From contig BDSL01000018.1 in assembly GCA_003116995.1 (NCBI GenBank), forward strand, positions 248,001 to 312,000: a stretch of 64,000 bases of DNA, read 5' to 3'. The translations under genes and the position numbers were made by a program. Positions 17,055 to 64,000 of the stretch are shown piece after piece. Origin of the DNA: Yamagishiella unicocca (Eukaryota; Chlorophyta; Chlorophyceae; Chlamydomonadales; Volvocaceae). The stretch's first letter is position 1. Every line of letters begins with the position of its first letter. The notes below the pieces were generated by a model. It searched no databases, was not told the origin of the DNA, and saw only the letters and a list, made by a program, of their open reading frames with translations.

Positions 17055-17110
<56 letters not shown>

Positions 17111-28075: not shown

Positions 28076-31000
28076 ATGGTGCTTGAGCGGCAGCTTAGCT
28101 CCGCTGGATGCTCCACATCCTATGCTGCCATCCATCAGTCTAGAATCCCACTGAACTCATCGTTCGGCCGGCGTGGTGTGCGCGCTAGGCAAGTGCGCTC
28201 TTCCTGCCAAGCATATTCCAGGGCTCTCCCCCCTCATCATCCTAATTCTGCCGTTGTGTAGGTGTGCTGCTCAACCAAGACCATACCACGGCTCCCACTC
28301 TCCCGAACGGGTGAGCTTTCCTTCGGGTGGCTGGTATTGCTGCGATTCCCAACGCAGCCCTAGAGACCTAATTCCCAATCCCTCCTGCTCGCGCCCCCGC
28401 TCGCAGGACTCGAACCGCCGACATGTTCCACCGCACCGCACGTGGAGTCCGGTGGCCGCGAGCGCAGCGACTGTTGCTCCCTCGTCGCCATCGCGCGACG
28501 GCCTCCGCTCCCTCCCTGCCGACCTCATCACCAGCATTCCCGACGCCATCCCCTGCTTGGAGGATCTGGAGGACTTGCGCAACCGCGCCATGCAGTCGTC
28601 GCCCACCCGGCCCGGCCGCTTCCCGACCGCAGCCACACCCAGCAGCCCACGGCGCGCTGTAGCGGCACCCAACAGCACCCACAGGGCCAACGGCACCCCC
28701 CACATTCAGTCCGACGACTCGGACTGCATGCTCCCCCCTGACGCCTCACCCGTGGAGCCCCCACGCGCGGAGCGGAACACCAGCCACACGGCCGACCTGC
28801 CGCAAGCAGCTGCCCCGCCCCCGGCGAACACCGCCAGCGCGCACCCCCCGCCCGCTGGCCGCTCCGCGCTCTCCCACTCGGTGCCGCTGTCGCAGCCCCT
28901 GGCGCGCCCCAACCCGCCGCCGCGCGACGCAGCGGCCGCCTCTGGCGGCCGCACCCACCACAGCGCCTTCAGCCGCCGGCGGGCGCCCGGGGTGCAGCCG
29001 GTCATGCAGCTGACCATGGTGATCAAGAGTGTGCGGGACTGGCGCCGGCTGCCGGGCCTGCTGGCAGACCTGGCGCCGGACGGCGGCCTGGACCCGTTCA
29101 ACGCCGCCGCCTTCCTGACGCACCTGGCGCAGCTGGTGGCAGCCGCGCCGCCCTCCTCGCCGGTTGACGTGCAGGTGGTGGAGCGGATGCAGGTGCGGCA
29201 ACAGGTGGTGGTGGTGGTGGCGGGGTGGTGGGGAACCCGTGGGTATGGGTAGGGGTGGGGGGCTTCAGAGGAAAGCCGTAGGTCGGCACTGAAAAGTAAA
29301 ACCGAATAGGAAACGTTTTAGTGGTGTTGGGGCAGGCGCGCAGGGCGTGTTGCCCTAACTCTGAGCCTTGGGTTGCTTGTGTGGTCGAGGACAGTCCAAG
29401 GTGCCCGCGGGCGGTTGACCCTATCGGAGCTTACTTGTAGTAGCAGTAGCAGCAACGAGCGAAGCCAGAGGGCACGCAGGGAAGCCCTAGTGACGCCCCG
29501 GGAGCGCCAGCCTCCAGGTGCTTGACGTCGGGGCCGCTTATACCGTGCTGTATGCTGCCAGTCCCCTCCAAGGCTCCCATCGTTCCGCGACGTTGCATGC
29601 CCCCCCCCTCCTCCGCGTGTTACCTGTCCTCCTGCGCTGCAGGCCGCAGCGCTGGCTGTGGTGGAGCCGAACATGCACGAGTACCGCGCGCGCCAGGTGT
29701 GCCAGCACCCCGGGGGCGGGAAGCCAGGGGGGGGGGACGCGACGGAGTTGCAGTTTCACGGGGGGTCAGCGGCAGCACAGCAGCGCTGGAGAGCAATCTT
29801 GAAGGTAGTGGTGTCCTAAAACTTAACTGTTTGCGTAGCGGCGAGGTTTTGGTTGGGTTGTGACAGGGAACCCCGCCCTCCTTAGCCGGGGTTGTCCCGC
29901 CCTCCTCGTCTCCCCCGCATACCCACTCGGTGCCCGACCCAACCCAACCCTCTCATCCCCAGGTGTCCAACATGACCTGGGCGCTGGCGCGCCTGGGCCT
30001 GCCCTCGGGGGCGTCCTTCGTGCGGGAGCACCTGCTGCCGGCCACCTACCCGCTGCTGCCCTGGTGCGGCTGGGACACCTCGGGAGGGGATGTGGGTCCG
30101 GCGAAAGTGCAGGCCTGGGTAAAGTGCAGGCCTCGGAACAGGTTACAGAGAGCGCTGGGGTGCTGGGCGGGCGGGGTGCGCGTGTGCTGCTGCGGAGCAC
30201 TGCACTGCCTCACTTACCGGCAAGGTTGACAACTCAACCACGCGGGCGACCGCCCCTCCCCAGGTATGAGCCGCAGCACCTGTCCAACACGCTGTGGGCC
30301 CTGGCCACCGCCGGCCTGGCGCCCGACGACGGGTGGCTGGAGGAGTACCTCACGGTGGCGTTCGTGGCGCTGCAGCGGAGGGCGCTGGCGCCGCAGCACC
30401 TGGCCAACGTGCTTTGGGCGCTGGAGCGGATGGGAGTCATGCCGGACCAGGTGCGGGAGGAGGCAGCCAGAAGAGCGGAAAACGCAGAAAACGAAAAGGA
30501 GAAAGGAAGAGGTTGCAGGTTGCCAGTGACGAGGTTTAGGAGGCAGTGGTGGTGGTGGTGATGGTGGTGGTCCGTGTAGCGTGTGGAGGGACCCACAGGA
30601 CGGGAGAAGCCGCGGCGTGAAGCATGCCATATGCCGCCATGCCGCTCTCTCCGCGCTGCACAGGAGTGGATGGGCGCCTTCTACGATTGCGTGGAGGCGG
30701 CCGTGCCGTCCGCCAACTCGCAGGACTGCTCCAACATCCTCTCGTCGCTCGCGCTCATGGCCATGCACGAGCACAGCCCCGAAACCACCGCGGTGCTGGC
30801 AGGCCGCCTGGCCGAGCGGCTGCAGTCGCTGCTGACGACGGAGAAGCCCGCGCCGGGCGCGGGCCGCAGGGGCGCAGCCGCCGCGGCCGCGCCCCTGGAT
30901 ACAATCGTGTTGACGCCGACGCCGGCGCGCAGCGCCGGCGCTGCCGCGCCGGAGCCGGTGCCCATCTCAGTGGACGTTAGCGACCAGTCGATTGCCAACA

Positions 31001-34000
31001 GCCTGTGGGCGCTGGCGGTGATGGGGGTGCAGCCGGGCGGCGGGCTGTGGGAGGCGGTCACGGGCGCGCTGAGGCAGCGGATGGCCGACCCCACGCGCGC
31101 GGCGCCCGGCGTACACCCCGCCGCGCTGACCATCGTGCTGTGGGCGGCCACGACGCTGCGGCGGCCGCTGCCGGCGGCGGTGACGGGGCTGGTGTACGGC
31201 AGGGTGCGCGGGGCGCAGATGGAGGCCATGCAGGCGCGCAGCCTGGCGACCATGGTGGGTGCAGCGCCGCTGGGGTGCGTGTGTGTGTGTGTGTGTGCGT
31301 CTGTGTGTGTGTGTCTTACGTGTGTGTATGTGTTATGTGGATGGGTTGTGTAAACAGGAATAGGTCTGCAGGGCATGCGTCGCTTCCCTGCCCCAGCGTC
31401 GTTTTGTTCCCCGGCATTACACATGGGTGGGTGGACGATGAGGTATGATTGGATCAGGCACAGGCGTCTGGTCACAGCTGGTCTTCGGCTGGTGCTGTTC
31501 GCTGCCTTGAGGTCTACTGCTTTCCCCAACCCCACCCCTCCCGGGTCTTCCTCGACCCCCCCCCCCACGGGTCTTCCTCGAACCCCTCCCGGGTGCCGAC
31601 CCACGGGCTATCCTCTCATTACCCCCCCTCCCAAAACGTCGTGGCGTCCCGATCTAGGTCTGGGCTATAGCCACTGCGCCGCCGGAGCAGGCCCGACCGC
31701 CCCCGGAATGGGTGGCGGACGCAGTGGCTGCCTCGGGGCGCTCTGTGCTGCAGCTCGGCTCGCAGGTATGGAGGTTAGGGGGACCTGGCATAAGGCTTCG
31801 CGGGCCTGAACGGTGCCACCATGAGGGCGACTCGAGCGGCGTGTATAAGGGCAGCGTGCATGGGGGGAAACGGATTGCTGACGCGGGTTGGATCCGGGCG
31901 GGCCGGCGGAAGGCCGTGTGCGCGGCAAGCCGCAACGCCACCCACCCACCAATTCCGCGAACTCCACCAAGTCCCACCAGCCGCATCCATACTCCCACCG
32001 CCTTCTGCTGACGGCTCGCAGGGTGTCAGCAACGTGCTGTACGGGCTGTGCCAGCTGGACGCCCGGCCCGCCCCCGCATGGATGTCCGCCGTCGTCAACC
32101 ACTTCCACCGCAACCTGGGAGCCGAGGTGAGCGCGCCGCACAGCACCGCACATCACCGCACTGCACAGCACAGTACAGCACAGCACGTCGCCACACCGCA
32201 CCACACCACACCACACCGTTTAGGCGGCGCGGGCCCAGTGACTGCACGCCGGGGCGGATGGGAGGCCCGATCTCGCGACCAGTCCCCGCCCACCACGGCG
32301 ACGACGACCACGCGCCCTCGCGACGCTCGCCTGAAAAGAAAGAAACACCGGAGGACAATCGCCTTCAGGTTGCGTCGCGGTGCTTGTGCGAGGAGGCTTG
32401 CGGGAAGCAGCCGGGGGTCATTCACGCGGATGTGGGCGGCTTGCGCTCTGCCAACGGGCTATCGCGCCCCGTCCCGCAAACCTTGTCGTGGTATCTGAGG
32501 CCCGTCCCGGCCGCGTGATGCCCGCGTCCCCTCCCTCCCGCGTCGTCGTCGTCCCGAAGGCGAGCGGCCAGTCGGTGAGCAACGTGCTGTGGTGCCTGGC
32601 CAAGATGGGCTACCGGCTGAACGCGGAGGGCATGGACATCCTGGTGGGCCTTGTGCGCACGCGGCTGGCAGCGTGGCAGCAACAGCAGCAGCAGCAGCAA
32701 CGCCAGCTGCAGCAGCAGCAACAGGGCCACAAGCGGCAGCAGCCGCAGCTGCTGCCGCCGCCGCCCTTCAGCTCGCAGGAGATGTCCAACGTGCTGTACG
32801 CCATCGCCAGCATGGAGTACGCCGCGGAGCCGGGGGGCGAGCTGGCGGAGCTGCTGCTGGAGGGCTCGCGCGCGCGGCTGCACGAGGCCAACGCGCAGGA
32901 GCTGAGCAACTTCATGTGGAGCTTGGCGGCACTGCAGGTGGGCGCCATCGGGGTTTCGAGGAAGACCCGTGGATGCCAGGAGAAACCGTTTAGGACAGAC
33001 GTTTTGAGATACATGCTGGAGAGCCCATCGGGGTGGGGCGGAGGGGGCCGGGCGACCTGGCTGACTGGCTGGTTGACCTGCTGCTTTGGGTTTCGTTGCG
33101 TTGGAAGGTACACAAGGCAGTGATCCTGCGGGTCGACCCTTCCTTCTATCGGTAGTAGCCGCTCAACCCTCCGCCGTATTCCTCCATCCTGGATTTCGCC
33201 ACGTGTGTCTGATGCTGTCTGTTGCTGCTCCGTCCAGTCACACATTCCCTGCAACGCAGCCCCACCCCCGCACTCACCCGCTCCCCGGCCCTACCCCACC
33301 GCGCTTCCCCTCGCCCCGCAGATCACCCCCTCCGCCGCCTGGCTCGTCGACTTCTACGCCGCCGCTGAGGCCCGGCTGCCCACCTTCCAGTCCCGTGACC
33401 TGGCGCAGACGCTGTACGGCGCCGCGAAGCTGCGGCTGCCCTTGCAGCAGCGCGCAGCGCCCGCAGCCGACACCCCCCCGGCCGCCGCGACCTGGTTGTC
33501 CGCCGCCCTGTCCGAGGCCCCGCGCCTCATCGCCACCGCCAGCGCGCAGGACCTGTGTAACCTGTCCTGGGCGCTCGTGCAGCTGGGGGTGCCCGTGGGT
33601 CCGAGCTCGCGCCTGGCGGTGGCCTTCACTGCGCGCCTGGTGGCGCTGGCCGCCGCCAGCGACCCCTCGCAGCTGGCGCTGGGCGTGTGGGCGCTGGGCA
33701 AGTGGCGCGTGCAGCCCACCCGGCCGCAGATGGACCGCCTGGAGTTGGCCACGTTTCGACAGGTGGGGGGGTGGCTCGCGTGTGTGGCTGGGTGGCTCGC
33801 GTGTGTGTGTGGATGGGTGGGGGGGATGCCGCGCAGGTGGGTGCCGCGCGGGGGGAACTGGGGATTGCCTGGCCGGGCGACCGGAGATGCATCTGAGATG
33901 AACATGAGCGCGGTGAAATAGAGTGTGGCCTCGGTCAGAAGCCGGTTGCCGGGCGCATGCATGTGCCGGTGCATGCTTCGTGGCATTTCCTCGGCAGCTG

Positions 34001-36633
34001 GCGTACTTGATACTCGATCTCTCTCCTCCTCTCCCTCAACCCTCACCCGGCCCTGCCGCCGCAGGTTCCCTCCATGCGGCCCCACGAGCTGGCGGCCATG
34101 ATGAGCGGCTTCGCGGGCATGGGCCACAACCTGCCCACGGAGTGGCTGGCGGATGCGATGCAGCAGGTGGCGGCCCGCAGCCGGGAGTTCGGGCCGCAGG
34201 TGCGGAGCGGGAGGGGGGGAGAGGAAAGCCCGTGGGTCGGCACTGACGTGGGGGGGAAGGGGGCCCCGCTGCGGCGACGGGGGGGCATCCTGTGAACATA
34301 CATGGTTGGTACATTCGGGTGCGATGCGTGACGAGTAGGGCGGCGGCGAAGGGATGCTGGGAAGCCCGGGGGGGAGATTGATTGGACATCTTTGAGTTGT
34401 TTGCGGGGAGGGGAGGTTGTAAGGAGAACGGGGAGGGGAGGGGAGGTGGCGGGTTGATGGACGCCTCGATTCCGGGGTATCGGTATGCTGATAAACTAGG
34501 ATTAGAAGCGAGGACTACGACTTGCCCATCTTCATGTCCTCCAGCCAGCGACTGCAAGTTGTAGCGCGTACATACATACCACGTAGGGCCTTAGGCCCAC
34601 TGCCAGACCGCCAACCCTCCCTCCCTCACCCTCTTATCTCCCCCTCCCTCCCTCACCCCTCTTATCCCCCCTTTCCCCCGCAGGACTGGACGGTGATGCT
34701 GTACGCCCTGGCGCGCGTCCAGGACGACACCACCAAGCCGCAGACGGAGGAGCTGGTGCAGCGGCTGGTACCCCGGCTGCACCGCCTGCCGGTGCCCTCG
34801 CTGGTGCTGCTGGCGTACTCGTGCGGCTGCATGGGGCCCAACCACACCAGCCGGGCGCTGGTCACCCGCTGCCTCTCGCTGCTGGCGGCGGGAGCCGCAG
34901 CCGAGCCGGCAGGCGCCGCCGCGAAAGCGGTCCCCGCTGCTGCCCTCCGCGCCGCGCCCGGGACATCCTCGCGGAAGCACAGCGCCGGCTCCGCGGGGCG
35001 TGGATTCTCAGAAGCGCCGGCGGCGGCATTGCCGGCGGGTAAGGAGCGGCGGCTGGCGGCGCCGCCGCCGCCGCCGCCGTCGCTGTCCCCGCAGCAGCAG
35101 GCGGAGGCGCGGGCGGTGTCGGTGTCGTCGCTTACTGCCGTGGAGCTCAGCGCGCTGCTGTGGTCGGCGGTGCGAGTGGGCGTCAAGGTGCTCCCGCACG
35201 ACTTCCGCGACCAGTTCTTCAGGTGGGGCTGCGGCGAGGTGGCACCCTCCTCCTCCCACCTCCCCGCGCGGTGCTCCTCTGCTGCCTCATCGCGCCGCAT
35301 CTTCTCGCACCTCGCAGCAGCCCAGTGCGCTCGGTGTCCATCCACTGCCACCGCCTGTGTTGGAAAACGTACTGCTCCCACTTGCACACAGTCGTATTCC
35401 CACCTGCACCACCTCTTCGCCGCAAACAAGCCCTCCAACGCCGCCCGCGCATGGCGGCCTCCCCTCGATGGTGCAAACCATAAAGCGCTAGCGTATCGGT
35501 ACCTGCACGCAGCTTGAAGGCGGCAGGGCCACACTTCACACGAAGACAAACACGCACGCGCGCGCTCGTTGCCTATTCCCCGACACACTGCACTCCGGAT
35601 GGCTGCGCCCACCGCTGCACAACCCAGCCAGCGGGTGGATAGCGGGCCGCGTGCGCCCATGCGTCCTCCGACACACCCTTCGTCCTCCGACACACCCTTC
35701 GTCCTCCACTTCCCTCCCGGCTCATCATCTCGTCATCACACGACCCTCCTCCCGCCTCCATGACGCCCCCCTCGCAGCCGCACCCAGCCGCTGCTGTCGA
35801 GCCTGCCGGCCAGCCTGGTGGCGTCCTACCTGTGGGCTGCTGGCCGGCTGCGCATGTGGCTGCCGGCGGAGTGGCGCAAGCAGCTGGTGGAGCGGGGGGT
35901 GGCGGTGCTGGGGGACATGCGGGCGCGGGAGCTGGTGATGTGCATGTCGGGGCTAATGTGGCTCAGGTGCGAGGCGGGGGGGCAGAAGGAGGTGGGAGTG
36001 AGGGGGGCGCCGGTTGGCGGTGGGAGTGAGGGAGGGTGCTGAGGGAAGTGCTCGGAAACTGCTTGTTCTCGGCTTACATGCGTCCAGCTTTCGCCTGCCT
36101 CCCTCGGCCTCCCTTTGCTCGTTGTTTCGCGTTTCCATTCATCATGGGCTTGCGCATGAGTGGAGGATGACCGGAAGAAACCGTGCTGCAACCGCCTGGC
36201 CCTAACCTAACCCCCAACTGCCCCCCCAACCAACCTCAACCAACCTTCCTGCAGGGTTTGGCCCAGCCGGGAGCTGCTTGACGGGCTGCGCGAGTGTTTG
36301 AAGGCGCAGGGCCCGCAGATGCCCGAGGCCATGCGGCTGCACGCGGAGACGGCGCTGGACGTCCTGGTGAGGCGCGCGGTGCTGGCTCGCTTCCGGGAGC
36401 GGCGTTTCGGGTTGCGGCGCGGCTGGCTCGCCCGGGTGCGGCTGGGCAACGAGCGCGCCGCCGCGGAGGGGAAAGGCAGGGGCTTGGGAGCGGGGGCGGC
36501 GGCGAAGGCGCGGCCGGAGGGCTTCGTGTCTCGGCGAGGTGCGCTGGTCCAGGGGGTGATGCGGCGGCGACCCAGCCGGTTGCCGGCGGCCGAGCCGGCG
36601 TCTGGGGTGCTGGTGGCCGAGGAGGCGCACTAG
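28076..36633 (+). CDS. OPR-like helical-repeat protein, probably organelle RNA-binding
   Basis: Fourteen exons, about 1401 residues: 28076-28255, 28407-29192, 29643-29696, 29963-30141, 30264-30450, 30664-31254, 31691-31765, 32022-32126, 32572-32937, 33322-33762, 34065-34199, 34684-35222, 35778-35966 and 36255-36633. A degenerate helical motif recurs a dozen or so times: VSNMTWALARLG, LSNTLWALATAG, LANVLWALERMG, IANSLWALAVMG, VSNVLYGLCQLD, VSNVLWCLAKMG, MSNVLYAIASME, LCNLSWALVQLG. This spacing and wording match chlorophyte OPR proteins, which bind chloroplast or mitochondrial transcripts. The N-terminus (MVLERQLSSAGCSTSYAAIH) looks like a transit peptide, followed by about 200 disordered residues. 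A poly-Gln tract lies near residue 760. No RAP domain was seen at the basic C-terminus. The ends of exons 1 and 4 (weak GTGTAG and GTTACA donors) and the exon 9 start are the least sure. Confidence 0.75.
29266..29325 (+). repeat. introner-like motif, type A, OPR-like intron 2
   Basis: AGAGGAAAGCCGTAGG, TCGGCACTGAAAAGTAAAAC, CGAATAGGAAACGTTTTA. Same order and spacing as the GLDH intron 10 copy, in transcription orientation, about 75 nt inside the donor. Confidence 0.88.
32952..33020 (+). repeat. introner-like motif, type B, OPR-like intron 9 5' end
   Basis: GGGTTTCGAGGAAGACCC, GTGGATGCCAGGAGAAACC, GTTTAGGACAGACG, then ATACATGCTGGAG. It starts about 14 nt inside the donor. Confidence 0.88.
34221..34246 (+). 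repeat. introner-like motif, type A, OPR-like intron 11 5' end
   Basis: GAGGAAAGCCCGTGGG then TCGGCACTGA, about 20 nt inside the donor. Confidence 0.85.
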
Positions 36634-39167: not shown

Positions 39168-39367
39168 TTCTTAGATCGGTGTATAGCTACTTCCATGCGC
39201 GTGGATATGCCAATCGCCAATCCAATGGCTGGTTCTGATACGGCAATACCCGTACGGCAACTTTCCAACTGCACGAGCAGAAGGCAGAATGGCGCAGCGC
39301 GCTTACTGTGTCCAGCGGGATCCACCCGACTGTCCTCCGCTGAACCTACGGATACTTGGAGGCACAT

Positions 39368-39775: not shown

Positions 39776-39988
39776 TTCCGGAATAATACCACAGTCACTC
39801 GCGTTATAGGGTCAATCTATGGTCATTGGGTGGCCCCCATAGGCGGGGGCGCGCTTGCAGCTTCCTTCACTTCTCCCCTTCGCCCCCCTTTTGGCCAGCG
39901 GGAAGTGCACCACCGCAGCCGTAGACGCAACCCGCGCCGCGTCACACACGTTTTTCTCCGTACAGGTCCCGTCCGTACGGCCCGCCGC

Positions 39989-42450
39989 CTACTCCGCCGC
40001 CGCTGCCAGCTGCCGCACCACCCCTTCCTCCACAGCGAACGCGGCCTGCAGCCGCTGCTGGAGCTCCAGCTCCGCCTTGAGTTGCTGCAGGCAGGCCACC
40101 GCCGCAACGACCCGCGGGTCCTGCGAGGAGGACGAGTGATGGGTGCGGGGCCGCATGCGGCATGACGTCATCAGACGGCGCTGGCCGGCAGGAGGGTACC
40201 CACGCGGGAGAGGAGCAGCCCCCTTCGCGCCAACACCGCGATATACCGCCTCCAGGGCACCGACTGGTACCTCGAGGGTGACTCCCCTTGCCGCACACCA
40301 CGATGCGCCAAGGCCCGCACAGAAGCGGCGCAGTGCTAGGTGGAGAGCAGCCGGTGGAGAGCATTGCGGGCCTTACGGTATGCGTATGGCAGGTGCCTTC
40401 TTAACTCCGTGCCTGGCCTGTTCCGGTGCGCCACCAGCGCCGCTGCCGCCCTGGACAAGGCGCCTTTTGCCCGCCGCCACCCGCTGCCACCCACCTGGTT
40501 GGTCAGGCCCTGCTGCGACTTGAGGGCCCTCACGCCGTCCGCCTGGCCTCGCACCCGCTCCTGCAGCGCCGTCAGCGCCTCCTCGCTGGGCTGTGAGCCG
40601 GGGGGGATCTCGGGCACCAGCGGCCGCCCCGCCAGCAGCACCTGGCTGCCGCCATCGCCTCCCCTCCCCCCGTGCCGCACCTCCCATCGGTCGAACAGCA
40701 AGGCCGCGCCGGCGCACGTGCCTGCGCGCGGCAGCAGTAGTAGCAGCGGCGAGCGGCAGTAGCAGCATCGCAGGTCAGCTTCAGCCTCACATCGTGGCGT
40801 GCGTGCGGTGTGATATGACGGCGGTGAAGAACGGCCATGACACCCGGCAGCCACCACCTGGCAGCCACCACCCGGCAGCCCAAAGCGCCCTTCGTTGACG
40901 CACCCAGACCCACACCAGCTCCATAGCGCCTCTCGCCCCACCCTTCCCTGCCCACAGCAAAGCCCATGCCCCTCCTTCTCCCCTCCCTCCAGCTGACTCC
41001 CCACCCCTCACCGAGTCTTACTATTCAATACTGACCCACGGGTTTGCTCTCATACCCTCACCCTACCGTTGGGTGACATGAGCCCCAGGACCAGCGCCTC
41101 CGGGCAGGTCAGGGCGCCGGGGCCCTCCCCGCCGCCGTCGCCGCCCGCGGTGCTGCTGCCGCGCGGACCGCCAGTTGCCAGCGTGAGGCTGCGCAGCTGG
41201 CCGCGGCGAGGCGGCCCCCGAGCAGCCAGCACCTGGGGCACCAGCAAGGGTAGTCGAGGACAAGCATCATGACCCGGATTCGAAGCATGTTGCCGCCCCA
41301 CTCCGCACAGCACAGCACGCGTTTCCACCCCGCCCCGCCCCGCCCCCGGCCCCAACCCCGCCCCAAACACGCATACACACACACGCACCGTGCGCAGCAG
41401 CTCCGCCCCGCCCTCGTCCGCATCCAGCAACGGCCAGCTTATAGTACGGGGTACGGCAGCCTGCTGAGACGAGCTGCTGCCGCCGCCGCCGCCGCCGTTG
41501 CTGCTACTGCCACTGCAGCTGGCCTTCAGTGCCTCCGCGGCGGCGCGGTTCATGTACTGCACTCTCAAGGGGCCGCTGGCGTCGCCGTCAGCGCTGCTGC
41601 TGCCGCTACTGCCGCTGCTGGGGTCGCTGGCAGAGCTCTCGCCGCCGTGGGCCCCTGACCCCGGTGATGTTGGCTGCGACGGTAACGACGCCGGCGCCGA
41701 CGCCGATGGCACCGCCAGCGGCCGCGGCTCCGGAGCCAGCAGTACGACACAGCAAGGCAGTGTGTCCAGCTGGGTGGGCAATGCTAGCAGGTCCCCGCTC
41801 TCCAGCAGCGGCCTGGGGGGGGGGGTGCGCGGGCGGGTTGTGAGAGCAGGGTTGTGGGTACGAGAGGAATCCCGTGGGAGCAGGATTGTGGGTGGGCAGG
41901 GGGCGAGGTGGCGGGTGAGGCAAGCCCATGGGTCGGCTAGGTGGGGGGGAAACGGAGGTCCGTTACGGGGAGCAGGTACCGACCAAGTGCAGGGGGGCTT
42001 GCTGTTTGGGGTGTAGGCAGGGGAAAGAGGTAGGTACTAAGATGCCGCGACCGGGGAGCGCATCAGGACACGTGCCCACCTGCCGTACGCTCGCCGCGTG
42101 CACTCGTGTAGGAGTACGACAAGGCTGAGGCTCTGGTAGGAGGAGGGGTCGCACGCGGCGGGGGCGGCGCCGGGTGGCGGCGGTGGCGCGGCGGTGGTGG
42201 AGGGCGGTGCCGCCGAGACCAGGGTGGAGGCGCCGCGGAGGCGACCTGCTCTTCGACAGCTGTGCGCCCTCTGCCGGTTGACAGTCGGCCATGCAGATGA
42301 GGGGCAGCTGCAGCTGCAGCTTGTGGGCTCGAGGGCTGTGCAGCGGAGCGCCGCGACAGCCGCGACGGCGGCGGGTGACAGCGCGCTAACGGTTGCCGAT
42401 GCGCTACGCCCTGCGAGCGCGTTGGTGGCAGCGATGCCTAGACGCAGCAT
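39989..42450 (-). CDS. PAS/MEKHLA-like domain protein with WHEP-like C-terminus
   Basis: Five exons (42080-42450, 41389-41812, 41067-41232, 40495-40721, 39989-40120), 439 residues, all phases consistent. The ATG at 42450 starts MLRLGIAATNALAGRSASAT, a likely organelle-targeting leader. Residues about 100-330 resemble a PAS/MEKHLA fold: SLVVLLHECTRRAYG, LPTQLDTLPCCVVLLAPEP, LRVQYMNRAAAEALKAS, a gap rich in Ser/Gly, ISWPLLDADEGGAELLRTV, and later GLMSPNG with FDRWEVRHG. The C-terminal 65 residues read LQERVRGQADGVRALKSQ, then DPRVVAAVACLQQLKAELEL. This is the pattern of WHEP-TRS helix-turn-helix modules normally attached to aminoacyl-tRNA synthetases. Both domain calls are by pattern. The gene is divergent from the mS37-like gene. 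Confidence 0.6.
41012..41058 (-). repeat. introner-like motif, type A, PAS-WHEP intron 3 5' end
   Basis: In transcript sense: GAGAGCAAACCCGTGGG, TCAGTATTGAATAGTAAGAC, TCGG. It starts within about 15 nt of the donor at 41066. Confidence 0.8.
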
Positions 42451-48800: not shown

Positions 48801-51800
48801 GGCCGGGGTGTGTGGGTGTGTGTGTATACGGCGGGAAGACCCGGTTAAACCACCGGCCGGGAGGGGGACGGGGGCATGGGGGGAACGGAATGGAATGATG
48901 TGAACGGGGCAGCCAGGAAAAGGTCAGGGACGAAGCTGGGCATCAACCGATCGAGTGAATCCACTTGGCCAGCGGTCCGTGGAAGCTGGGCACCAAGGCG
49001 CAAGGGCTTCAGGAGGAAATAAAGAAGACGCACATGCCCGTGTTCGGCACTGTGCAACCGAACATGTTCCACGAGATGGTCAACGGCAACAACAGCGATG
49101 GCGTGCTCAACCGCCTCCACGCTGTTCCACTGCCATCGATCTCCATCCCAAGCATGGGTAAGGAAGTTGCTTTGGACCGTCTTGTGTATCATGCGGTTTC
49201 CAAAATCGTGATGGCGTGAATGCCAGGGTATTGCGCACGGGGGTAGGGAGCTACACGGGCGCAACCGCCGCCATTTGCTTATTTGATTATCTCCCATATT
49301 GGCACGCGCATATGAAGCAAATGGCGGCGGTTGCGCCCGTGTAGCTCCCTACCCCCGTGCGCAATACCCTGGCATTCACGTCATCACGATTTTGGAAACC
49401 GCATGATACACAAGACGGTCCAAAGCGACTTCCTTACCCATGCTTGGGATGGAGGTCGACGGCAGTGGAACAGCGTGGAGGCGGTTAAGCACGCCATCGC
49501 TGTTGTTGCCATTGACCATCTCATGAAACATGTTTGGTTGCACAGTGCCGAACACGGGCATGTGCGTCTTCTTTATTTCCTCCTGAAGCCCTTGCGCCTT
49601 GGTGCCCAGCTGCCACGGACCGCTGGCCAAAAGCGGGTGTACCGCCTCGGGCCCTTGGCCATGCAGGGCGCATGCACGGTGCCTTGGGCCTTGGCCATGC
49701 AGGGTGTGTTCGTTGAAGAGCACTCAAAGCTTTCGCACGATCGGTAGAAGTACTCATCTGTAGACCGGCTGCTATTTTCCGCGTCCTTATCCCCCGCCAT
49801 CGTCCCCCTCCGCCAGCCGCCTTTACCTTAGTCGCTTTTATACCATCTTTTCCTTCTCGAATACGTTGCCTGATCACCTTACACTACGATTAAGCAGCGC
49901 CTCGGCTCCGTCTACTCGCCTCCCGTCTCTTCTGGACCGCCATCTTCACCGCCTTGGTTTGTCGGCCGTGGATTCGCGGATTCTTTTTAAACCCCCTCCC
50001 CCAGCGACCCCCGTGTGTGCCAAACGTTTCCCAATCGATTTCACGTTTCCGTGCCGACCCATGGGCCTCCCCTCTCTCATTCCCCCACCTGAACAGCTCC
50101 GGCTCCTCCTGCGCGCTGAGAGCGAGGGTCCCCAGCGCGGGTGTGGCCAGCCGCATGGCCACCACCTGCTCGTCCACGGGGGGGATGCGAGGCCCGGTGC
50201 CGTGTGCTCCCATCTGCGGCCAAGGCGGAGGGGCAGGTGGCGCAGGGGAGGGATCGGCCCCAGGCGTCAGCCCCGGCTTACGTGCCGTAGGGAAGAGGGG
50301 AGGGGGCAACTTGGAGGGCGGGGGGGTATGGGGGAAACCGGTGTGTGTGTGTGTGTGGGGGGGGGGGGGCAATTGGAAGGAGCAGTGCCGGTGAGAGGGA
50401 GAATACGAGGAGGGGCAAAAGACAAGATCAGGGGATCCAGGGAGTTCCCCCGGACGCCACCAGCCCCCCTCTTAACCCCCGCTAACCCCCTCCACCCCCC
50501 CCCTCACCTGCGTGATTCCCCCAATCTGCTGCTCCCTGATGGACGCGTAGTTCTGCAGCGTCAAGCCGTACGGCGCCAGGTGGTCCGCCACCTGCTGCAC
50601 CCGGCAGCCGGCCTGCACAGTCACCTGGAGCAGGCGGGGGGGAAGGGGCGGAGGGGGGGAGTGGCGTGAAAACTGTCGACACGAAAACGACAGGATAGTG
50701 GGCGCATGGTCGGCGGACAGGTGGGGAGGTGGGGAGGGGCAGGCGGAGGGGCAGGAGGAGGGGCAGGAGGAGGGGCAGGTGGAGGGTATTAGGGGGGAGA
50801 GGGATAGGTCGAGAGTAGGAGGGGCAGGCGGAGGGGCAGCCGGCGAGGGAGGGTCTGACAACAGAGGGCTGGGCCCCAGGAGCTGATCGCAGGGGTGGCG
50901 GAGCCGGACCACCGCTGCAAGGTACCCACCCCCACCCGCACCTGCATCTTCTCCCGGTCCACCCCGATGATGTTGTCCATGCCGCCCAGCGCCAGGACGC
51001 CTTCGTCGCTGAGGGCGGCGCCGTTGGGGCTCAGGCCGGAGCCGGCTGGCCGCAGCCGCTCGTTGCGGCGCGCGGCGATGCGGAGGAAGGCCTCCACCTC
51101 GGACTCGGTGTCCGGGTGGAAGTAGCGGCTGGACGGCGAGGGAGGGTGGGTGGCATAAGGAGGGTGGGGGCGAGAGGAGGGGGGAACGTGAGGAGGGGTC
51201 GCAGCCAGCCAGCCAGCCTTGTCGCTTATGTAAGCGCCCAGCTTCGCCCTGCCCCAGGCCCCCTGCCGCTGTTCGGGTTGCCCTTGCCCCTCCTTGCTTA
51301 CCGCCGGCTACTCCCCTGCCTGCCGGCGCCCCCTCGCTTCTCAGCGGGACCTCTCAACCGCTCCCCTTCTCCGGGCCCCCTGCTCCGGCCCCCCCCTGCT
51401 CCGGCCCCCCCCTGCTCCGCCCCCCCTGCTCCGCCCCGCCCTGCTCCCCCGCCCCACCCCGGTGTCGCCTCGTGTGTGCCGCTCCAGTTCGAGAGGGTGT
51501 CCGTGTTGGGGGTCTGCTGCGCCGCCATGTACTGCAGCTCGGGCGGGAACTTCGTACCCACCAGGGGGTCCTGGGGGAGGGGGAGGGGAGGGGTGGGGAG
51601 GGGTGAGGCCGTGCGGTGCTGGCTGGCACTAGCAGCGCCCGGGCCCTCCCCCACCGGTCCATCCAACCCCGCAATACAATCGCCGCCCCTCTCCCACCCG
51701 TCTGACGACCACCTGCCACAGGTCGAAACCCAGGTAGCGGCCCCCACCTCCATTGCGCCCCCACTCACACACACATACACATTTATACACATTTACACAT

Positions 51801-53541: not shown

Positions 53542-56500
53542 ATGGACTTCAGCGACTCCTACCGATGCTCGGGCCCTGCCCCTGCATTTTCACCTGACGG
53601 ACGTTTTGTAGCCAACGTTGCGGAGTACCGCCTTATCATTCGTGAGGTCGAGAACTTACGTGTGGTTCAGCTGTACTCGTGCCTTGACAGCGTTGACAGG
53701 TCAGGCGGGTGTCGTATGGGGGCCGACCTGCACGTTCCCGGCGGAAATGCTGTATGCTACTGGGGATGGAGCTGACTAGAAAGGGCGCCAACTAATAAGG
53801 GCTGGCTTTGATGCCATGTGTGTAAGCCGGGGACCGGGTGGGTCAGGCTAAGGCACCAGAAGGGATCCAATCGGGGCCCTTTGCGACCCTGTCGCGCGGA
53901 GTGCTTGCGTGGGATGGGCCGGCTTCCACTGAGGTGTTCTCGCTAGGTTAGGAATTGAACTTGAGCTCACACATTCCTCCCGCCGTACCCTTCGGAACTT
54001 TTGGAGCGCTCCAGTTGCGTCTCCTCCCTTCCCTGTCTCCTCTCACCTCCCTCCCCTCCCCACCCCCCCCCACCTTCTCACCGCATCCCGTGCCGCAGCA
54101 TCGAGTGGTCCAGCAACTCCTCCTACGTCCTCTGCGGCCTCTTCTCCCGCGGCGTCATCCAGGTCCGCTCCAAACCCCGTCCTCCGCCATTCTCCACCCC
54201 GTTCTCCCCACCTCCCGAGCCGCACCTCTCCCTAACCCGCTCTCTCTCTCTCTCTCTTCCAAGAAACCCTTGACTGCCGTACCGCCGGTCTCCTGCCGGC
54301 CTTGCGGCCTCACCGTAAGGCTCCCATAAGGCCCGCTGCTGCTGCCGGCTGCCGGCCTCGCAGGTCTGGTCCGTGGAGAGCTCCGAGTGGACGTGTAAGA
54401 TCGACGAGGGGCCGGCCGGGGTCCAGGGCGTCCGCTGGAGCCCGGACGGCTCCTGCGTGCTTGTGGTGGCCGAGTTCCAGATCCGGATCACGGTGTGGTC
54501 GCTGGTGGACCGGAAGTGCGTCTACCTGCGGGGACCGAAGCACGCGGAGCGCGGCATGGCGTTCAGCGCGGACGGAACGCACCTGGCCGTGCTGGAGGTG
54601 GGGAGGGGAGGTATGAGAGGAAACCCACGTGGGTCGGCACTGGCTTGGTGGGAAGGGGAGGGAAGGGGGCCAGTAGGGAGGGCGGTGCGGGCGTGCGGCT
54701 GCTGCAGCTCTTGTCGCGGCGCCGCCCCTATGGCGAGGCCCCGGTTCCTGCTGGGCCGGATTTGCCCTCGCGTTATCCTCATGCGGGTCTGCGGTCTGTA
54801 CACATCGTCTCTCCGCGCAGCGGCTACTGTGTGTTGTTCTCCAATACTAGGCGCCCAGAAACCGCCTCGCCTCGTACCATGGACGCCTTCCACCTACCGC
54901 CCTCGGAACGCCCCGCACAGCAAACCCAGCCATCTCCCCCCTCCCCCACCTATGCGCCGACCCACGGATTTCCTCTCTTCCCCCCTCTCCCCCCTCGTCC
55001 CCCTCATCGCCTCTCGCCCCCGCCCGCGCCCGCCACCCCACAGCGTACCGACATGAAGGACTGGGTGGCGGTGTACGACACTCGCACGTGGTCGCAAGCC
55101 GCGCACTTCCAGCTGGAGACCTCTGACGCCGCCGACCTGGCCTGGTCGCCGGAGGGTGGCATACTGGCCGTGTGGGACAGCTGCCTCAAGTACAAGGTGC
55201 CTTCGCCTCGCCGCGTGTGTGTATGTACGGCAACCGTGTCATCTCCCTCCTTCGCCACGCAATGCGCGCAAACAAGGGGCTTTGCGGTGCACGGGAGGAC
55301 GGCGCCGTGGATCCCTGGAGACGTCCCGTCCGGAGGGCGCAAACACGGCAGGCTGTTGCGAATCGCGGACGGGCTGCGCGAGGGGACTGCTGTATGTGTC
55401 CGACCCGGCCCGCAGCTCCCGAGGCGTGAGAACGGCTGCCAAACACTGTCCCCGCCTCTGTCCAACCCGCCTTTTTTTCCTCCGGACCTCACTCCCAACG
55501 ACCGCAGGTGGTCCTGGTGGACCCCAGGACCGGGTCGCCCCTCGCCTCCTACGCGGCGTACAGCCATGATGCGCTGGGGGTCAAGGTGAAGGAGCCGGCT
55601 GGGGCGGGGCCTGAGGGACTGTGGCGGGGCCTGCGGGCTGGGGCGGGAACCAAGCGCCGGGGCAAGCGGTGGGGACGCGTCGTGGGTAGCCGTTCCGTCG
55701 CATGAGGGCTGGGGCGGACAACGGGTTTTGTTGGGACGTCCATGCCACCACACCTGACATGCATACCGCGCACAAGACAGCAGACAGAGAGACGCAGTGT
55801 CCACCATGGAGTCTCGAGCAAGTCGCCACGGAGACTTTCGCGCTGCTCGGCGGTAACTCGAACCCACAATCGGTGGCCCCCGCCGTGCGCCCTCCCTGCC
55901 CCCTTCCCTCCCTGGCGCAGTGCTGCTCCTGGAGTCCCCGCGGCGAGCTCCTGGCGGTGGGCTCCTTCGACCGCTGCGCCAGACTGCTCAACCACGTGAC
56001 GTGGCAGCCGCTGCTGGAGGCCGACCACCCGAACCAGGTGGCAGCGCCTGCTCGCGTGGTGGTGTATCGCGAGGTGAGGCGTGTGCTGGGTGAACAGTGG
56101 GGGTTTCGAGGAAGACCCGTGGATGGGACGGGGGGGCGGGTTGCCATCGCTGCTACGGGGCGCAAGCCCAGTGTGTGCTCCGCACCGACTGTGGGGCAAG
56201 GATCAAGGAACATCAACCAAGGATCGTGGGGCGCCAGGCGCGGTCTGCGCTGCAAGATCCTTTGAGTGCTTCTGTTTGCGCCGCAGACCACCAGTCCATT
56301 TCGCCCCTTCCCGCTTCCATGCGCACGCTGCGCACGACACGATACTTTCAGCGATGAAATTAACACTCAGTGCGACGCAATCCGGTGCGCGCTGCGCTTT
56401 CAGGAGCTGGACGAGCAGGTCGGCCCCGCGTCGCGCCCCGCGGACCCAGCATCGCGATCCACGTACGTCATCGCGCAGCTGCCCGCGGCCGTGCCGCACC

Positions 56501-57899
56501 TCAAACCCCCGCTGGACGCCCCGGGACCCAAGCTTGGAGTGGGTGGGTGGGTGGGTGCTTGTCGGTTTGTGTTGCTGCTCAAGGTACGCCTTAGGTCACG
56601 GACGGCAAGTATCATCCTCCTTGCCAGAAGTTGGCACCATGCGACACGTAATGTGCCGGCAACAGCAAGCAAGCCATTGTCATGGCCACGTGCTGGCCTC
56701 TCACCCCCGGCCAGCTCACTGCACCTGCGGCGCACGGCCAACACCCGCTCCCTGCAGTCCGCCTGCACCGCCGTGTTTTCAGTGGAGCTGCGAGACCCCT
56801 GCTCCTCCGCCGCCGCTGTTACCGCACCCCCCGGCGAACCCTCACCTGCTCCGCAGCCGCCCTCCTGCGCCGGCCGCTCCATCCTCCGCGCCGCCCAGTT
56901 GCTGTGGTTTCTGACATCCCCCCTCCTTCCCGCGCCATGGCGGCACTTGCTTGGGGCCCAACCCACCTGTCGCAGGCCGCTGCGCCTGGAGCGGCGACGG
57001 GCGCTACCTGGCCACGGTGGAGGACGGCAGCTCGGCGGCGGTGTGGGTGTGGGACCTGGAGGCCATGGAGCTGGGCACCGTGCTGCTGCACCTGGCGCCG
57101 ATCACGGACCTAGCCTGGGGCCCTAGGGTGCGTTGTTGCTGGGGCCGCAGGGCCGGCTCGTGGGGGGCTGCCGATAGGCCCCGCGCGTGTGCGCGACGTC
57201 TCCGCGGAGTCCGACAGCGGCCGGAAGCGCGCGCGCGCGCGCGGAGGGGGGTGGAGGCGTGTGGGCGAGCAGCAGCTGCAAGGTTGCTGCGCTTGTTTAT
57301 TTGGTGGTGCCCCGCCCTGCCGTGAGGTGCAGGGTAGCATGCTGGCGATGGCGACGGGAGCTTCCAAGGTGCACCTGTGGACCCCCGCAGGCGCAACCAT
57401 CGTGCAGTTCCCGCTACCCAGCTTACAGGTTCGGGGGGTTGGCGGGAAGACCCGGTTGCACGACATAGGAAACGGACGGCATAAACTATAGCCGGCGAAT
57501 GGTTTTCGGACTCGCGTTTGTGTGTGCATGCAGTCGGAAAACTTGGATTGACTTTCTCACGACCGGGAAACGTGCGGATGCTTCGGAGTTTGCATTCCGG
57601 TAGACCAGGTCCGGGAGGGTCCTAGGGGTAGGGTGGGGCGAAGGCCGTACAGACCTCCTCCGGGAAAAAGACCGCCGTGAAGCCGCTGCGGGGCACAGGC
57701 AGGTTGGGTGACAGGACGCAGGTGCCCGTCCGTCCTGGCCGCCCACCGTGTGCTTGCCTCCGTCCATGTGCTTGCTGCGCCCTCGCCGCTCGCGCCACGA
57801 CCCGCTCCTCAGGCCTTTGGCTGCACGTGGAACAACACGGCGACCACGCTGCTGCTGCGTGGCCCCGAGACCTTCTGCTGCGCCTACCTGACGGCGTGA
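53542..57899 (+). CDS. WRAP73: WRAP73 (WDR8) homologue, WD-repeat protein
   Basis: Ten exons (53542-53699, 54099-54162, 54364-54597, 55044-55196, 55508-55585, 55921-56073, 56404-56542, 56976-57127, 57333-57428, 57813-57899), 437 residues, with phases agreeing. WRAP73 works at centrosomes/basal bodies and spindle poles, with SSX2IP in animals and fungi, in microtubule anchoring and cilium formation. The start MDFSDSYRCSGPAPAFSPDG and the successive blades match the family: YRLIIREVENLRVVQLYSCL, IEWSSNSSYVLCGLFSRGVI, WTCKIDEGPAGVQGVRWSPD, QIRITVWSL, VAVYDTRTWSQAAHF, ILAVWDSCLKYK, ELLAVGSFDRCARLLNHVTW, PKLGVGRCAWSGDGRYLAT, AVWVWDLEAMELG and SKVHLWTPAGATIVQFPLP. The region between the two propeller halves (STYVIAQLPAAVPHLKP) is also typical. 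The gene diverges from GLDH. Confidence 0.94.
54615..54643 (+). repeat. introner-like motif, type A, WRAP73 intron 3 5' end
   Basis: GAGAGGAAACCCACGTGGG then TCGGCACTGG, about 17 nt inside the donor. An inverted partner lies at 54955-54980 in the same intron. Confidence 0.88.
54955..54980 (-). repeat. introner-like motif, type A, inverted, WRAP73 intron 3 3' end
   Basis: Reads GCCGACCCACGGATTTCC then TCTC on the + strand, the reverse complement of the motif at the 5' end of the same intron. A pyrimidine tract and the acceptor at 55043 follow. Confidence 0.88.
56099..56126 (+). repeat. introner-like motif, type B, WRAP73 intron 6 5' end
   Basis: GGGGTTTCGAGGAAGACCCG then TGGATGG, about 25 nt inside the donor at 56074. 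Confidence 0.85.
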
Positions 57900-61656: not shown

Positions 61657-64000
61657 CTACATGTTGAGGGGCATCATCCGCTGCGACCGCTCCCCGCACA
61701 GCGGGCAGGGGTCGCCCACCGCGGAGGCGTCCGCGCAGGGGCGGCAGAAGCACAGGTGGGCGGTGGCGCCGTGCAGCAGCACCACCGTGCGCGGCATGGT
61801 GCGGCACTTGACACACAGGCTGGGGTCCAGGCCAGGCACGTTGCCCCAGAAGGCGCCGCGGGGAGCAGCCGCCGACGCCGGCGGCGGCGGCGGCGGCGGC
61901 GCGGGCCCGGTCGTGGCGCCAGCCGCGGCGGCGGGAGCTGAGGCCGCGGCGGGCTGCTGCGTTGCAGGGCTGGCGCCGGAGGCTGGAGGTGCAGCGGGTA
62001 CGCGCTTGAGGAAATGGGCCAGAGCGGGGTTGAGGCCGAGCGCTTGGTGTGGGCCGGCGGCGGCTGACGACGGACCCGCAGCGACGGGGTTGGGTTCAGG
62101 GTCTGAGGTGTTGGGCGCGGCAGCTGAGGCGGGAGTTGCTCCGGGGAACCGCAGGTGGTGGTGGGAAGGCGCGGCTGCTGTCGATGCGTTGGAGGTTGGC
62201 GGCGGCGGCGGCGGCGCCGCCGCCGCGTCGGCGGCGGGGCGGGCCCAGGAGAATAGGGAGGCTGCGGTGGGGTGGCTACCGCCCATGGCGTCGCCCCAAA
62301 AGCTGGCACCGGTTCGCGCTGCTGCCGAAGTTCCGGAGTGCGATCTGGTGGCGGGGGGTGGGACTTGGGCGGTTTCCGCGTGGCTGGCGGCGGCGGCGGG
62401 GCGGGCGGATGCTTGGCGTGCGAGCGAGGCCGTAAAAGGCAGAGCTGCGGCGATCGCGGCAGCCAGCGATGAACCCGCATTGTGCTGGTCAGGGCTGCGT
62501 TCGTTGGGCTGTTGCTGCCAGCTGGAGGGTTTCGGAGCCGCAGCACCCGCCGTAGCCGGCGCCGCTGCGTTCGGCGCGGGTCGACCCTTGGTGGCAATGG
62601 CCGCAGCAGCAGAGGCAGGAGCAGGGGAGGAGGAGGATGGGGGTGAGGATGAGGAGGGTTCGCCGCCAGCGCGCACAGCTGCTTTGTTGCCATGGCGGCG
62701 GGCCGAGGTTCCAGCCGAGGGTTTGGCGGGCGGTTTGGACGACGGTGGCGCGGCCTCGGCGGGGGGGACAGCGGGAGGTGCAGCTGTAGCCGAAATAGGT
62801 TGTTGTTGTTGTTGTTGCTTAGGCCCAACCCCGCCCTGTTGAGGCCTAGCCTCCCTAGTAGCATCAGGCTTGCTGCCTGCCGGAGCCTTGCCGGCCGATG
62901 CAGCGGCGCCCGCCGCCTTGGACAATGCAGCTCCTCCGGCAGCAACCCCCCTGGCTGCAGCGGCCGGCACCTCCTGCTTCGAATTCGCCTGTGACGTTGC
63001 TGCTGCTGCCCCGCGACCGCCAGCCGCTGGTAAGGTCGAGGCGCCAGCCGCCGCCAGCTGCTGCTTCTGCGACTTGGCGCCTTGCGCCGGTGGTTGTGCC
63101 TTCCTAGGGTGTCTGTCGGCGTCCGCGGTCTTCCTTCGGCTGGCAGCCGAGACCGCTGGCAGCTTTCTGCCGCTGCGGGACGTCCTCGGCCCGAGCATGC
63201 GCTTGACATACGCCGTGACCTCATCCAGGAACCTCTCAGGCGTCTTGCGCCAATGGGGCCGAGACACAATCCCCCATGACACCAGCGCAGTGGCGAGCGC
63301 GAGGTTAGCCAGCGTGTAGACGAGGGTGCCCGCGGCGCCGGCGGGGGGTGAGGTGCTCTTCTGGGCTCGTGGGGGCTGTGGGGTAGGGGGGAAGGGGTTA
63401 CGACGGTTGGGTTAGGAGAGGTTGCAAGGAAAACCCGTGTAGGAGATAGGAGAGGGGTGTTGCGGCACTAGCGTTGGGGGTGAAACGGCAAGTAGAAGCA
63501 CACAAGAGGAGACGAGCTTGGGGCCAAACGGCGTGGACGTGTGGCGCGTGTGCGGTGGTGATGGCTGTGCTTTTGTGGCCTTGACCGGCTATGACGCTAG
63601 CAGTACAAAACGCGGGTCGTTCTATGTGGTCGGGGCCGTAATGACCCGAACTGGGGTGATAGTAGTAGTGAGGCAGGAAGGGGGGATTCCTCGACCTCTT
63701 GGGCCGGCAACAGCGCCCCCGGGGTGGCAAGGGCCGTACGCACGCCCCGCGATGCTCGATGTACGTCATCACAGCATGCAAAGCAGGGCGCCGTGACACC
63801 ATCCAGATGCGAACCCGCCGTGAGCCCAACCCTCCCAGCACTGCGCACGGAGCGAACTCCCGCGCCCCTCCTCCCCGTCCTCCTTGCGCTCCAAACGAGT
63901 GTACCAATCGTAAACGGCTTCATTTCTCGGCGCCGACCTACAGCTTTCCGCTTATACCCTCCTCGTGCTTCTGCCCCACAGGTGGCTTCGCACGGGAGGC
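61657..64000 (-). CDS. RING protein with MDM2-like C2H2C4 finger, 5' end missing
   Basis: The last exon (61657-63375) encodes 572 residues; the previous exon enters the window at 63980-64000 and continues beyond the right edge. The phase-0 join gives KPPPPRAQKS. A hydrophobic segment (TLVYTLANLALATALVSWGI) near the N-side is a likely membrane anchor, followed by a basic patch (RPHWRKTPERFLDEVTAYVK). About 400 Ala/Pro/Ser/Gln-rich, probably disordered residues come next. The C-terminal 50 residues form a RING: CVKC, LLHGATAHLCFCRPC, CPLC. The HGATAH element occupies the place of the usual third Cys and His and resembles the HGKTGH of MDM2-type RINGs. Such proteins are usually ubiquitin E3 ligases. 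The track-like GTG start at 63282 is internal; the true start lies outside. Confidence 0.75.
63410..63450 (+). repeat. introner-like motif, inverted, RING gene intron 3' end
   Basis: On the + strand (antisense to the gene): GGAGAGGTTGCAAGGAAAAC, CCGTGTAGGAGATAGGAG. It lies about 35 nt from the 3' splice site of the same intron that carries the 63905-63955 copy. Confidence 0.75.
63905..63955 (-). repeat. introner-like motif, type A, RING gene intron 5' end
   Basis: In transcript sense: AAGCGGAAAGCTGTAGG, TCGGCGCCGAGAAATGAAGC, CGTTTACGATTGG. It is a diverged copy of the long form, about 25 nt inside the donor. Confidence 0.8.

What the first reader, a model, noticed from the sequence alone, without database searches (positions are those of the whole stretch)
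29193..63979. A family of introner-like sequences at the ends of many introns, in several genes and on both strands
Just inside the 5' splice sites of introns in GLDH (introns 6, 7, 8, 9, 10), WRAP73 (3, 6, 9), the OPR-like gene (2, 9, 11), PAS-WHEP (3), IGPS (5, 8) and the RING gene, the same sequence recurs in transcription orientation. Type A is GAGAGGAAACCCGTGGG + TCGGCACTG, extending in the best copies to a roughly 50-nt block with AAAGTGAAACCGA and GGAAACGTTT. Type B is GGGTTTCGAGGAAGACCCG + TGGATGCGAG + AAACCGTTTAGG. Near the 3' ends of several introns the reverse complement appears (424-445, 31546-31606, 41915-41940, 47838-47886, 48826-48848, 52226-52252, 54955-54980, 63410-63450). Terminal inverted repeats bounded by splice sites are what is expected of introns created by insertion of DNA-transposon-like introners, as reported for some algae. 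Unrelated genes sharing intron ends is hard to explain by common descent of the introns.
Basis: partly seen in the sequence, partly recalled or inferred. Interest (0 to 1): 0.88.

Follow-up and report, generated by a model that had tools for sequence, protein, structure and literature searches.

The report
Truncated retroposon scraps at intron ends
In a Volvox-like green alga, unrelated introns share their end sequences because tiny broken-off tails of a copy-and-paste element tend to land in G-rich runs just inside splice sites; where it can be tested, the element lengthens existing introns rather than making new ones.

Summary
Profiles find 22 heads in the window (none in reversed sequence); 20 lie in predicted introns: 13 sense (median 16 nt from the 5' splice site), 7 antisense (median 68 nt from the 3' splice site). 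Genome-wide, patterns with up to 3 mismatches find 6,916 type B and 1,680 type A sites (controls 16 and 0).

The introner reading fails where testable. In 28 of 97 heads (27 distinct) the head sits between direct repeats, mostly 11-19 nt (2.2% of 737 controls); 24 of 28 lie wholly in one predicted intron that would keep 181-705 nt without the insert. In 20 of 27 the insert matches a consensus prefix end to end (75% identity or more). Copies thin out away from the fixed end. This is the signature of target-primed reverse transcription with extreme 5' truncation, on G-runs. G-runs follow 5' splice sites and C-runs precede 3' splice sites; that predicts the 3' pattern and more than half of the 5' pattern. 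Open: an excess at 5' splice sites, and the partner reverse transcriptase. Relatives could not be checked.

The parts
3123..3183 (-). type B head, 54 bits, sense in predicted intron 3002-3816 of the IGPS gene model; the last two tiny exons of that model are not supported by homologues, so it may lie downstream of the gene
4609..4625 (+). type A head, antisense in IGPS intron 4451-4869
4793..4818 (-). type B head, sense, 50 nt from the 5' splice site of IGPS intron 4451-4869
12465..12496 (-). type B head outside predicted genes; direct repeat GAAACATGGGGGGGG / GAAACATGGGGTGGG, insert 23 nt
13080..13121 (-). type B head outside predicted genes; direct repeat GGACTGGTGGGA twice, insert 36 nt
29267..29319 (+). 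type A head, sense, OPR-like gene intron 29193-29642, 68 nt from the 5' splice site
31542..31619 (-). cluster of three antisense heads (B, B, A) before the 3' splice site of intron 31255-31690; candidate direct repeat ACCCGGGAGGGGT around 35 nt (poor prefix fit, 0.62)
32954..33015 (+). type B head, 57 bits, sense, 16 nt from the 5' splice site of intron 32938-33321
34219..34247 (+). type A head, sense, 14 nt from the 5' splice site of intron 34200-34683
41858..41878 (+). type A head (10.4 bits), antisense, 44 nt from the 3' splice site of intron 41813-42245
46910..46966 (-). type A head, sense, GLDH intron 46558-46990
47650..47668 (-). type B head, sense, GLDH intron 47327-47682
47841..47896 (+). 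type B head, antisense, 16 nt from the 3' splice site of GLDH intron 47821-48308
48260..48283 (-). type A head, sense, 22 nt from the 5' splice site of the same GLDH intron 47821-48308
48683..48740 (-). type A head, sense, 3 nt from the 5' splice site of GLDH intron 48422-48749
50016..50065 (-). type A head, sense, 9 nt from the 5' splice site of GLDH intron 49953-50088
54597..54611 (+). left copy of a direct repeat (15 nt, 1 mismatch to the right copy) that contains the last exon base and the GT of the 5' splice site
54612..54646 (+). type A insert of 35 nt (profile match 54611-54644), sense, WRAP73 intron 54598-55043
54647..54661 (+). right copy of that direct repeat
54956..54977 (-). second type A insert, antisense, near the 3' splice site of the same WRAP73 intron; own weak candidate direct repeat (17 nt, 2 mismatches, score at the cut-off), insert 27 nt
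56104..56125 (+). type B head, sense, 30 nt from the 5' splice site of WRAP73 intron 56074-56403
48830..48846 (+). third related-looking sequence GGCGGGAAGACCCGGTT, antisense in GLDH intron; also at 52234-52250 and 57441-57457

Best explanation
The shared intron ends are very short, 5'-truncated copies of one retroposon family (subfamilies A and B) that spreads by target-primed reverse transcription. Shown: copies share one fixed end (TTCGAGGAAGACCC... in B, TATGAGAGGAAACCC... in A, as read on the cDNA strand), stop at varying points, and in over a quarter of the tested cases sit between detectable direct repeats of mostly 11-19 nt, the left one ending in a G-rich run at the fixed end. Inferred: a nicked G-rich strand primes on the RNA 3' end; the enzyme often copies only some 20-150 nt, and repair of the staggered nick gives the duplication. 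Because introns of this alga are G-rich after the 5' splice site and C-rich before the 3' splice site, heads land in sense next to 5' splice sites and in antisense near 3' splice sites. The introns existed before; the insertions lengthen them. Insertions in exons are probably removed by selection.
For: Direct repeats: score 11 or more in 28 of 97 heads (27 distinct sites) against 2.2% of 737 mismatched controls; 24 of 28 wholly in one predicted intron, remaining length 181-705 nt, inserts 21-142 nt, median 48. The insert is an end-to-end prefix of the consensus at 75% identity or more in 20 of 27. Copy number falls with distance from the fixed end: 6,916 sites for 20 bases at the end (up to 3 mismatches), then first-look candidates 2,970, 631, 395 and 33 for segments further in (first-look candidates are not strict counts). 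Recent activity: the 40 copies scored for a 117-nt segment, out of 2,970 candidates, are 97-100% identical over at least 112 nt. Flank G rises from 0.56 to 0.88 over the last 7 positions, 93 heads. A target model learned from that flank puts 86.5% (window) and 90.8% (loci) of non-exonic sites in introns; observed 20 of 22 and 84 of 90. It expects 22.0 antisense heads within 100 nt of the 3' splice site; observed 24 of 44. It gives exons 15.8% of sites; observed 0 of 112 heads.
Against: 69 of 97 heads have no clear direct repeat, and 7 of 27 inserts fit the consensus prefix poorly, so some repeats may be chance matches of G-rich DNA. No reverse transcriptase partner: the 3' regions of six LINE-like elements lack heads A and B at up to 5 mismatches, and three ORFs of a longer copy have no Pfam match. 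No poly-A or simple-repeat tail is seen in the copies displayed. The target model is partly circular, since it was trained on the same heads. Sense heads within 60 nt of the 5' splice site are more frequent than it expects: 33 of 55 against 18.8. Gene models are ab initio and partly doubtful at gene ends.
Confidence: 0.86

Rival explanations
1. Introners: DNA-transposon-like elements with terminal inverted repeats that create introns on insertion.
For: Heads concentrate next to splice sites in sense and antisense; inverted pairs occur in some introns (54598-55043, 47821-48308). Introners with TSDs and TIRs are reported in other algae (PMC9860276, passages seen).
Against: Inserts of 21-142 nt lie inside introns that keep 181-705 nt without them; both repeat copies are intronic in 24 of 28. 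Variable truncation and duplications of mostly 11-19 nt do not fit the 3-9 bp TSDs quoted for DNA-type introners. The two ends of intron 54598-55043 each have their own candidate duplication. Lengths of head-bearing introns vary widely (10th to 90th percentile 303-626 nt, 82 introns).
Confidence: 0.05
2. A conserved functional RNA element near splice sites (splicing enhancer or stem that brings intron ends together), kept by selection.
For: Heads near 5' splice sites in sense and near 3' splice sites in antisense could pair in the RNA.
Against: Only 15 of 75 window introns carry a head; direct repeats, truncation and near-identical copies are marks of insertion; two heads with repeats lie outside predicted genes; antisense position is explained by base composition; no Rfam match above gathering in the window and two weak ones (E 0.61, 0.78) in five loci.
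Confidence: 0.03
3. DNA-level spread of a minisatellite-like unit by slippage or template switching in G-rich repeats, without reverse transcription.
For: A tandem array of eight type A heads with 49-bp spacing exists at C3:1439830-1440196; the third sequence occurs twice exactly in one gene.
Against: Dispersed copies with an invariant end, a graded loss of the other end out to about 1.8 kb, and repeats specific to each site are not expected from slippage.
Confidence: 0.05

Closest known systems
Non-LTR retroposons (LINE/SINE type, spread by target-primed reverse transcription; general properties recalled, not read here)
   Same: One constant end, graded truncation at the other, target-site duplications of variable length beyond 10 nt, near-identical recent copies.
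   Different: Sampled copies with detectable duplications are only 21-142 nt; no poly-A or simple-repeat tail seen; the fixed end abuts a G-run of the target; no coding domain recognised in a longer copy; partner enzyme unknown.
Introners (Gozashti et al. 2022, PMC9860276; passages seen)
   Same: Mobile sequence shared by introns of unrelated genes in an alga, next to splice sites; a duplication can include the 5' splice site.
   Different: The insert is a small piece of a larger intron; no tested case runs from splice site to splice site; no terminal inverted repeats; duplications longer than the 3-9 bp quoted there.
DNA-transposon MITEs (recalled)
   Same: Short, non-autonomous, high copy number.
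   Different: No second terminus shared between copies was found: copies stop at different points.

Membership tests
Introner | Element spans the intron from splice site to splice site | tested here: not met
   Inserts 21-142 nt inside introns that would keep 181-705 nt (only the sites with detectable repeats)
Introner | Insertion turned intronless coding sequence into an intron (presence/absence in relatives) | not testable with these tools
   No relative's genomic DNA is held for this genome; the repeat positions argue against it
Introner | Terminal inverted repeats and/or short TSDs (common but not universal) | tested here: not met
   Inverted pair of intron 54598-55043 resolves into two inserts with separate candidate repeats; repeats mostly 11-19 nt
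Non-LTR retroposon | Constant 3' end with variable 5' truncation | tested here: met
   graded copy number. Which end is 3' is inferred from this pattern
Non-LTR retroposon | Target-site duplications of variable length | tested here: met
   28 of 97 heads against 2.2% of 737 controls; individual cases
Non-LTR retroposon | Own or partner reverse transcriptase with a shared 3' end | tested here: inconclusive
   Six LINE-like 3' regions negative; only 6 of at least 150 reverse transcriptase places were looked at
Non-LTR retroposon | Poly-A or simple-repeat 3' tail (absent in some known groups; recalled) | tested here: not met
   The fixed end follows the target G-run directly in the copies displayed
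SINE | RNA polymerase III promoter or tRNA/5S/7SL head | tested here: inconclusive
   No family match above gathering score in the window and two weak ones in five loci; the 5' end of the family was not established

The most novel reading that the evidence does not exclude
The retroposon is aimed at 5' splice sites, perhaps through transcription or splicing (for example the displaced G-rich strand of an R-loop just after the 5' splice site), and by duplicating its target it can copy the 5' splice site itself. That would be a route by which a retroposon makes tandem donor sites and shifts exon ends without being an introner. Hints: sense heads within 60 nt of the 5' splice site exceed the composition model (33 of 55 against 18.8; about 24 if motif-free introns set the expectation, 0.441), while antisense heads at 3' splice sites do not; three distinct sites have a duplication that contains or begins at the donor GT (L027, L058/L059, window 54597-54661). 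Against: in the loci, type A shows no such excess (5 of 15 sense heads within 60 nt) while type B does (17 of 27).
Probability: 0.25. Interest if true: 0.72.

Novelty: new variant of a known kind. Interest (0 to 1): 0.5.

Why it matters
Introner scans look for sequence shared between introns of unrelated genes. Here a large family meets that description, yet in the testable cases the introns are older than the inserts: a concrete source of false introner calls, and a cheap test for it (direct repeats inside the intron, graded truncation, composition null). It also gives a mechanism for intron lengthening in a volvocine alga: 15 of 75 window introns carry a piece, and head-bearing introns have a median of 433.5 nt (82 introns) against 282 (225 introns) (longer introns are also larger targets). 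If the excess at 5' splice sites holds up, target choice tied to transcription or splicing becomes testable.

Tried and rejected
LINE partner: 3 kb downstream of six reverse transcriptase domains (L067-L072) hold no A or B head at up to 5 mismatches (the only matches were three to the 17-base third pattern at 5 mismatches, taken as chance), and local alignment scores to the A and B tails (16-22) stay below the best of 20 shuffles scored with the B tail (20-28) in each region. Rejected for those six only.

A separate family 'D' starting TTGCGAGGAAGTCGG was suspected; further loci showed it to be an internal part of the longer B element with a small deletion.

Known RNA family: no Rfam match above gathering in the window; two weak hits (E 0.61 and 0.78) in five loci, taken as chance. 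Coding in a longer copy: three ORFs of L100, no Pfam family. The 5' end of the family was not reached: L105 and L106 share 948 nt that start about 1.6 kb from the fixed end.

Earlier composition nulls masked the target G-runs themselves; the test was redone inside the same introns with only the insert side masked.

Literature: searches (listings with starts of abstracts only) showed no description of this family; only PMC9860276 was opened, and only passages. That is no proof that it is unpublished. PMC11782384, on direct repeats near splice sites, was seen only as a listing.
Full report
What was checked. The window is C18:248001-312000 of a 133.4-Mb genome in 1,415 contigs. Its IGPS protein is 93% identical to one of Volvox reticuliferus and 90% to one of Chlamydomonas incerta, so it is a volvocine green alga; the species was not identified. 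I wrote a small gene-finding model, retrained it on the window and 60 loci without any knowledge of the motif, and obtained 312 introns with donor AG|GTGNG, acceptor CAG|G and GC3 0.876. The models of more than 80 residues in the window translate without stops, largely by construction. The IGPS model aligns with three algal homologues with one single-residue gap near the start and different N-terminal ends; its last five residues, from two tiny exons, are not supported. The C-terminal half of GLDH aligns with a solved GLDH.

Profiles of the two heads, built from loci elsewhere, find 22 matches of at least 10 bits in the window, and no match of 8 bits or more in the reversed window and loci. 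Twenty are in predicted introns, two outside predicted genes, none in exons; the one at 3123-3183 rests on the doubtful IGPS end and may be downstream of the gene. The 13 sense heads have a median distance of 16 nt from the 5' splice site, the 7 antisense heads 68 nt from the 3' splice site. In the 60 loci fetched by exact head matches (the first 30 listed of each type), without the overlapping locus L058, 84 of 90 heads are intronic and 6 intergenic. Genome-wide, patterns with up to 3 mismatches find 814+866 type A sites (reversed control 0) and 3,456+3,460 type B sites (control 7+9).

What the heads are. Reading outward from the fixed end, copies agree and then stop at different points. Segments further from the fixed end are rarer: 6,916 sites for 20 bases at the end; first-look candidates 2,970 for the first 117 nt, 631 at about 155-250 nt, 395 at about 310-440 nt and 33 at about 1.7-1.85 kb (first-look candidates are not strict counts, and only 40 were scored). 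Two long copies agree at 98.7% over about 1.7 kb, and the 40 scored copies of the 117-nt segment are 97-100% identical over at least 112 nt, so part of the family has been active recently. Heads A and B align with each other over about 95 nt with gaps and look like subfamilies.

Direct repeats. Using an ungapped local score with the left repeat ending at the head, 28 of 97 heads score 11 or more, against 2.2% of 737 comparisons with other loci. L058 and L059 show one site twice, so 27 are distinct. Examples: CGTGGAAGCACTGGGGGG around 29 nt in L044; TGCTGGGTCGCTGGTGGG around 59 nt in L063; GTGCGGGTGGGGGAGGG around 49 nt in L059. Repeat lengths are 11-19 nt except one of 25 with several mismatches. 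Of the 28, 24 lie wholly in one predicted intron, 2 cross the exon-intron border and 2 lie outside predicted genes. In 20 of the 27 distinct cases the sequence between the repeats is, end to end, a prefix of the head consensus at 75% identity or more; the other 7 are poor. Longer copies show the same by eye, for example CAAGGCGAAGAGGCT in L088. Heads without a detectable repeat, 69 of 97, may be older or lie in G-rich DNA where repeats are hard to tell.

Mechanism. A fixed end, variable truncation and repeats of this length are the marks of target-primed reverse transcription (established knowledge, recalled). On the strand as read, the flank directly before the head is increasingly G-rich, from 0.56 to 0.88 G over the last 7 positions (93 heads). 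In the clear cases the G-run is part of the repeat, hence of the target. The simplest reading is that a nicked G-rich strand primes on the end of the RNA, and cDNA synthesis often stops after some 20-150 nt. The nick, the RNA and the enzyme are inferred, not shown.

Why intron ends. Introns here are G-rich after the 5' splice site and C-rich before the 3' splice site. Weighting sites by the flank preference, 86.5% (window) and 90.8% (loci) of non-exonic target sites are in introns, against 20 of 22 and 84 of 90 observed. Within the same introns the model expects 22.0 antisense heads within 100 nt of the 3' splice site; 24 of 44 are seen. For sense heads within 60 nt of the 5' splice site it expects 18.8, and 33 of 55 are seen (simulated p printed as 0.0 from 4,000 draws); from motif-free introns the expectation is 0.441, or about 24. 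So composition explains the 3' side and more than half of the 5' side, but an excess at 5' splice sites is left. The window shows it most strongly (11 of 13), and it was chosen for that feature; in the loci type B shows it (17 of 27 within 60 nt) and type A does not (5 of 15). Exons hold 15.8% of target sites but 0 of 112 heads, as expected if exonic insertions are harmful and lost.

Against introners. Each has its own candidate duplication: 54597-54611 and 54647-54661 around 35 nt, and a weaker 17-nt repeat with 2 mismatches around 27 nt near the 3' end. Without both inserts the intron would still be about 350 nt. Among repeat-flanked intronic sites the smallest intron left is 181 nt. In L027 the duplication ACGAG|GTGCGGGG contains the end of the exon and the donor site, so the donor is now present twice, 120 nt apart. 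The 3-9 bp TSDs and TIRs that PMC9860276 describes for some introners (passages) do not match. Loss or gain of whole introns among relatives, the decisive test, could not be run because no relative's genomic DNA is held.

Limits. Gene models are ab initio; the composition null was learned from the same heads; no reverse transcriptase partner was found among six LINE-like 3' regions looked at, of at least 150 reverse transcriptase places; the full length and 5' end of the element are not known. Membership is therefore left at 'works like a non-LTR retroposon'.

Noticed in passing
window 48965-49280 and 49315-49630: A 316-bp inverted repeat, 97% complementary with a 34-nt spacer, lies inside the GLDH gene; the predicted gene model is broken between 49036 and 49948.
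   Followed up: no
window 15949-18332: Long run of MLPPPPASDL / MLPPPPASAL peptide repeats in predicted coding sequence on the minus strand.
   Followed up: no
G000 C3:1439830-1440196 (not a fetched locus): Eight type A heads in tandem with exact 49-bp spacing, so part of the element has become a minisatellite.
   Followed up: no
window 48830, 52234, 57441: A third sequence, GGCGGGAAGACCCGGTT, with two copies in GLDH introns; with the prefix TATAC there are only 6 sites genome-wide at up to 3 mismatches.
   Followed up: partly
L027 1300-1480: Nested insertions in one 5' splice-site G-run: a type B insert that duplicated the donor site, followed by type A heads.
   Followed up: partly
whole genome: 150 scored reverse transcriptase (RVT_1) matches among 610 first-look candidates, many in long open frames with identical scores, so reverse-transcribing elements look active.
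   Followed up: partly
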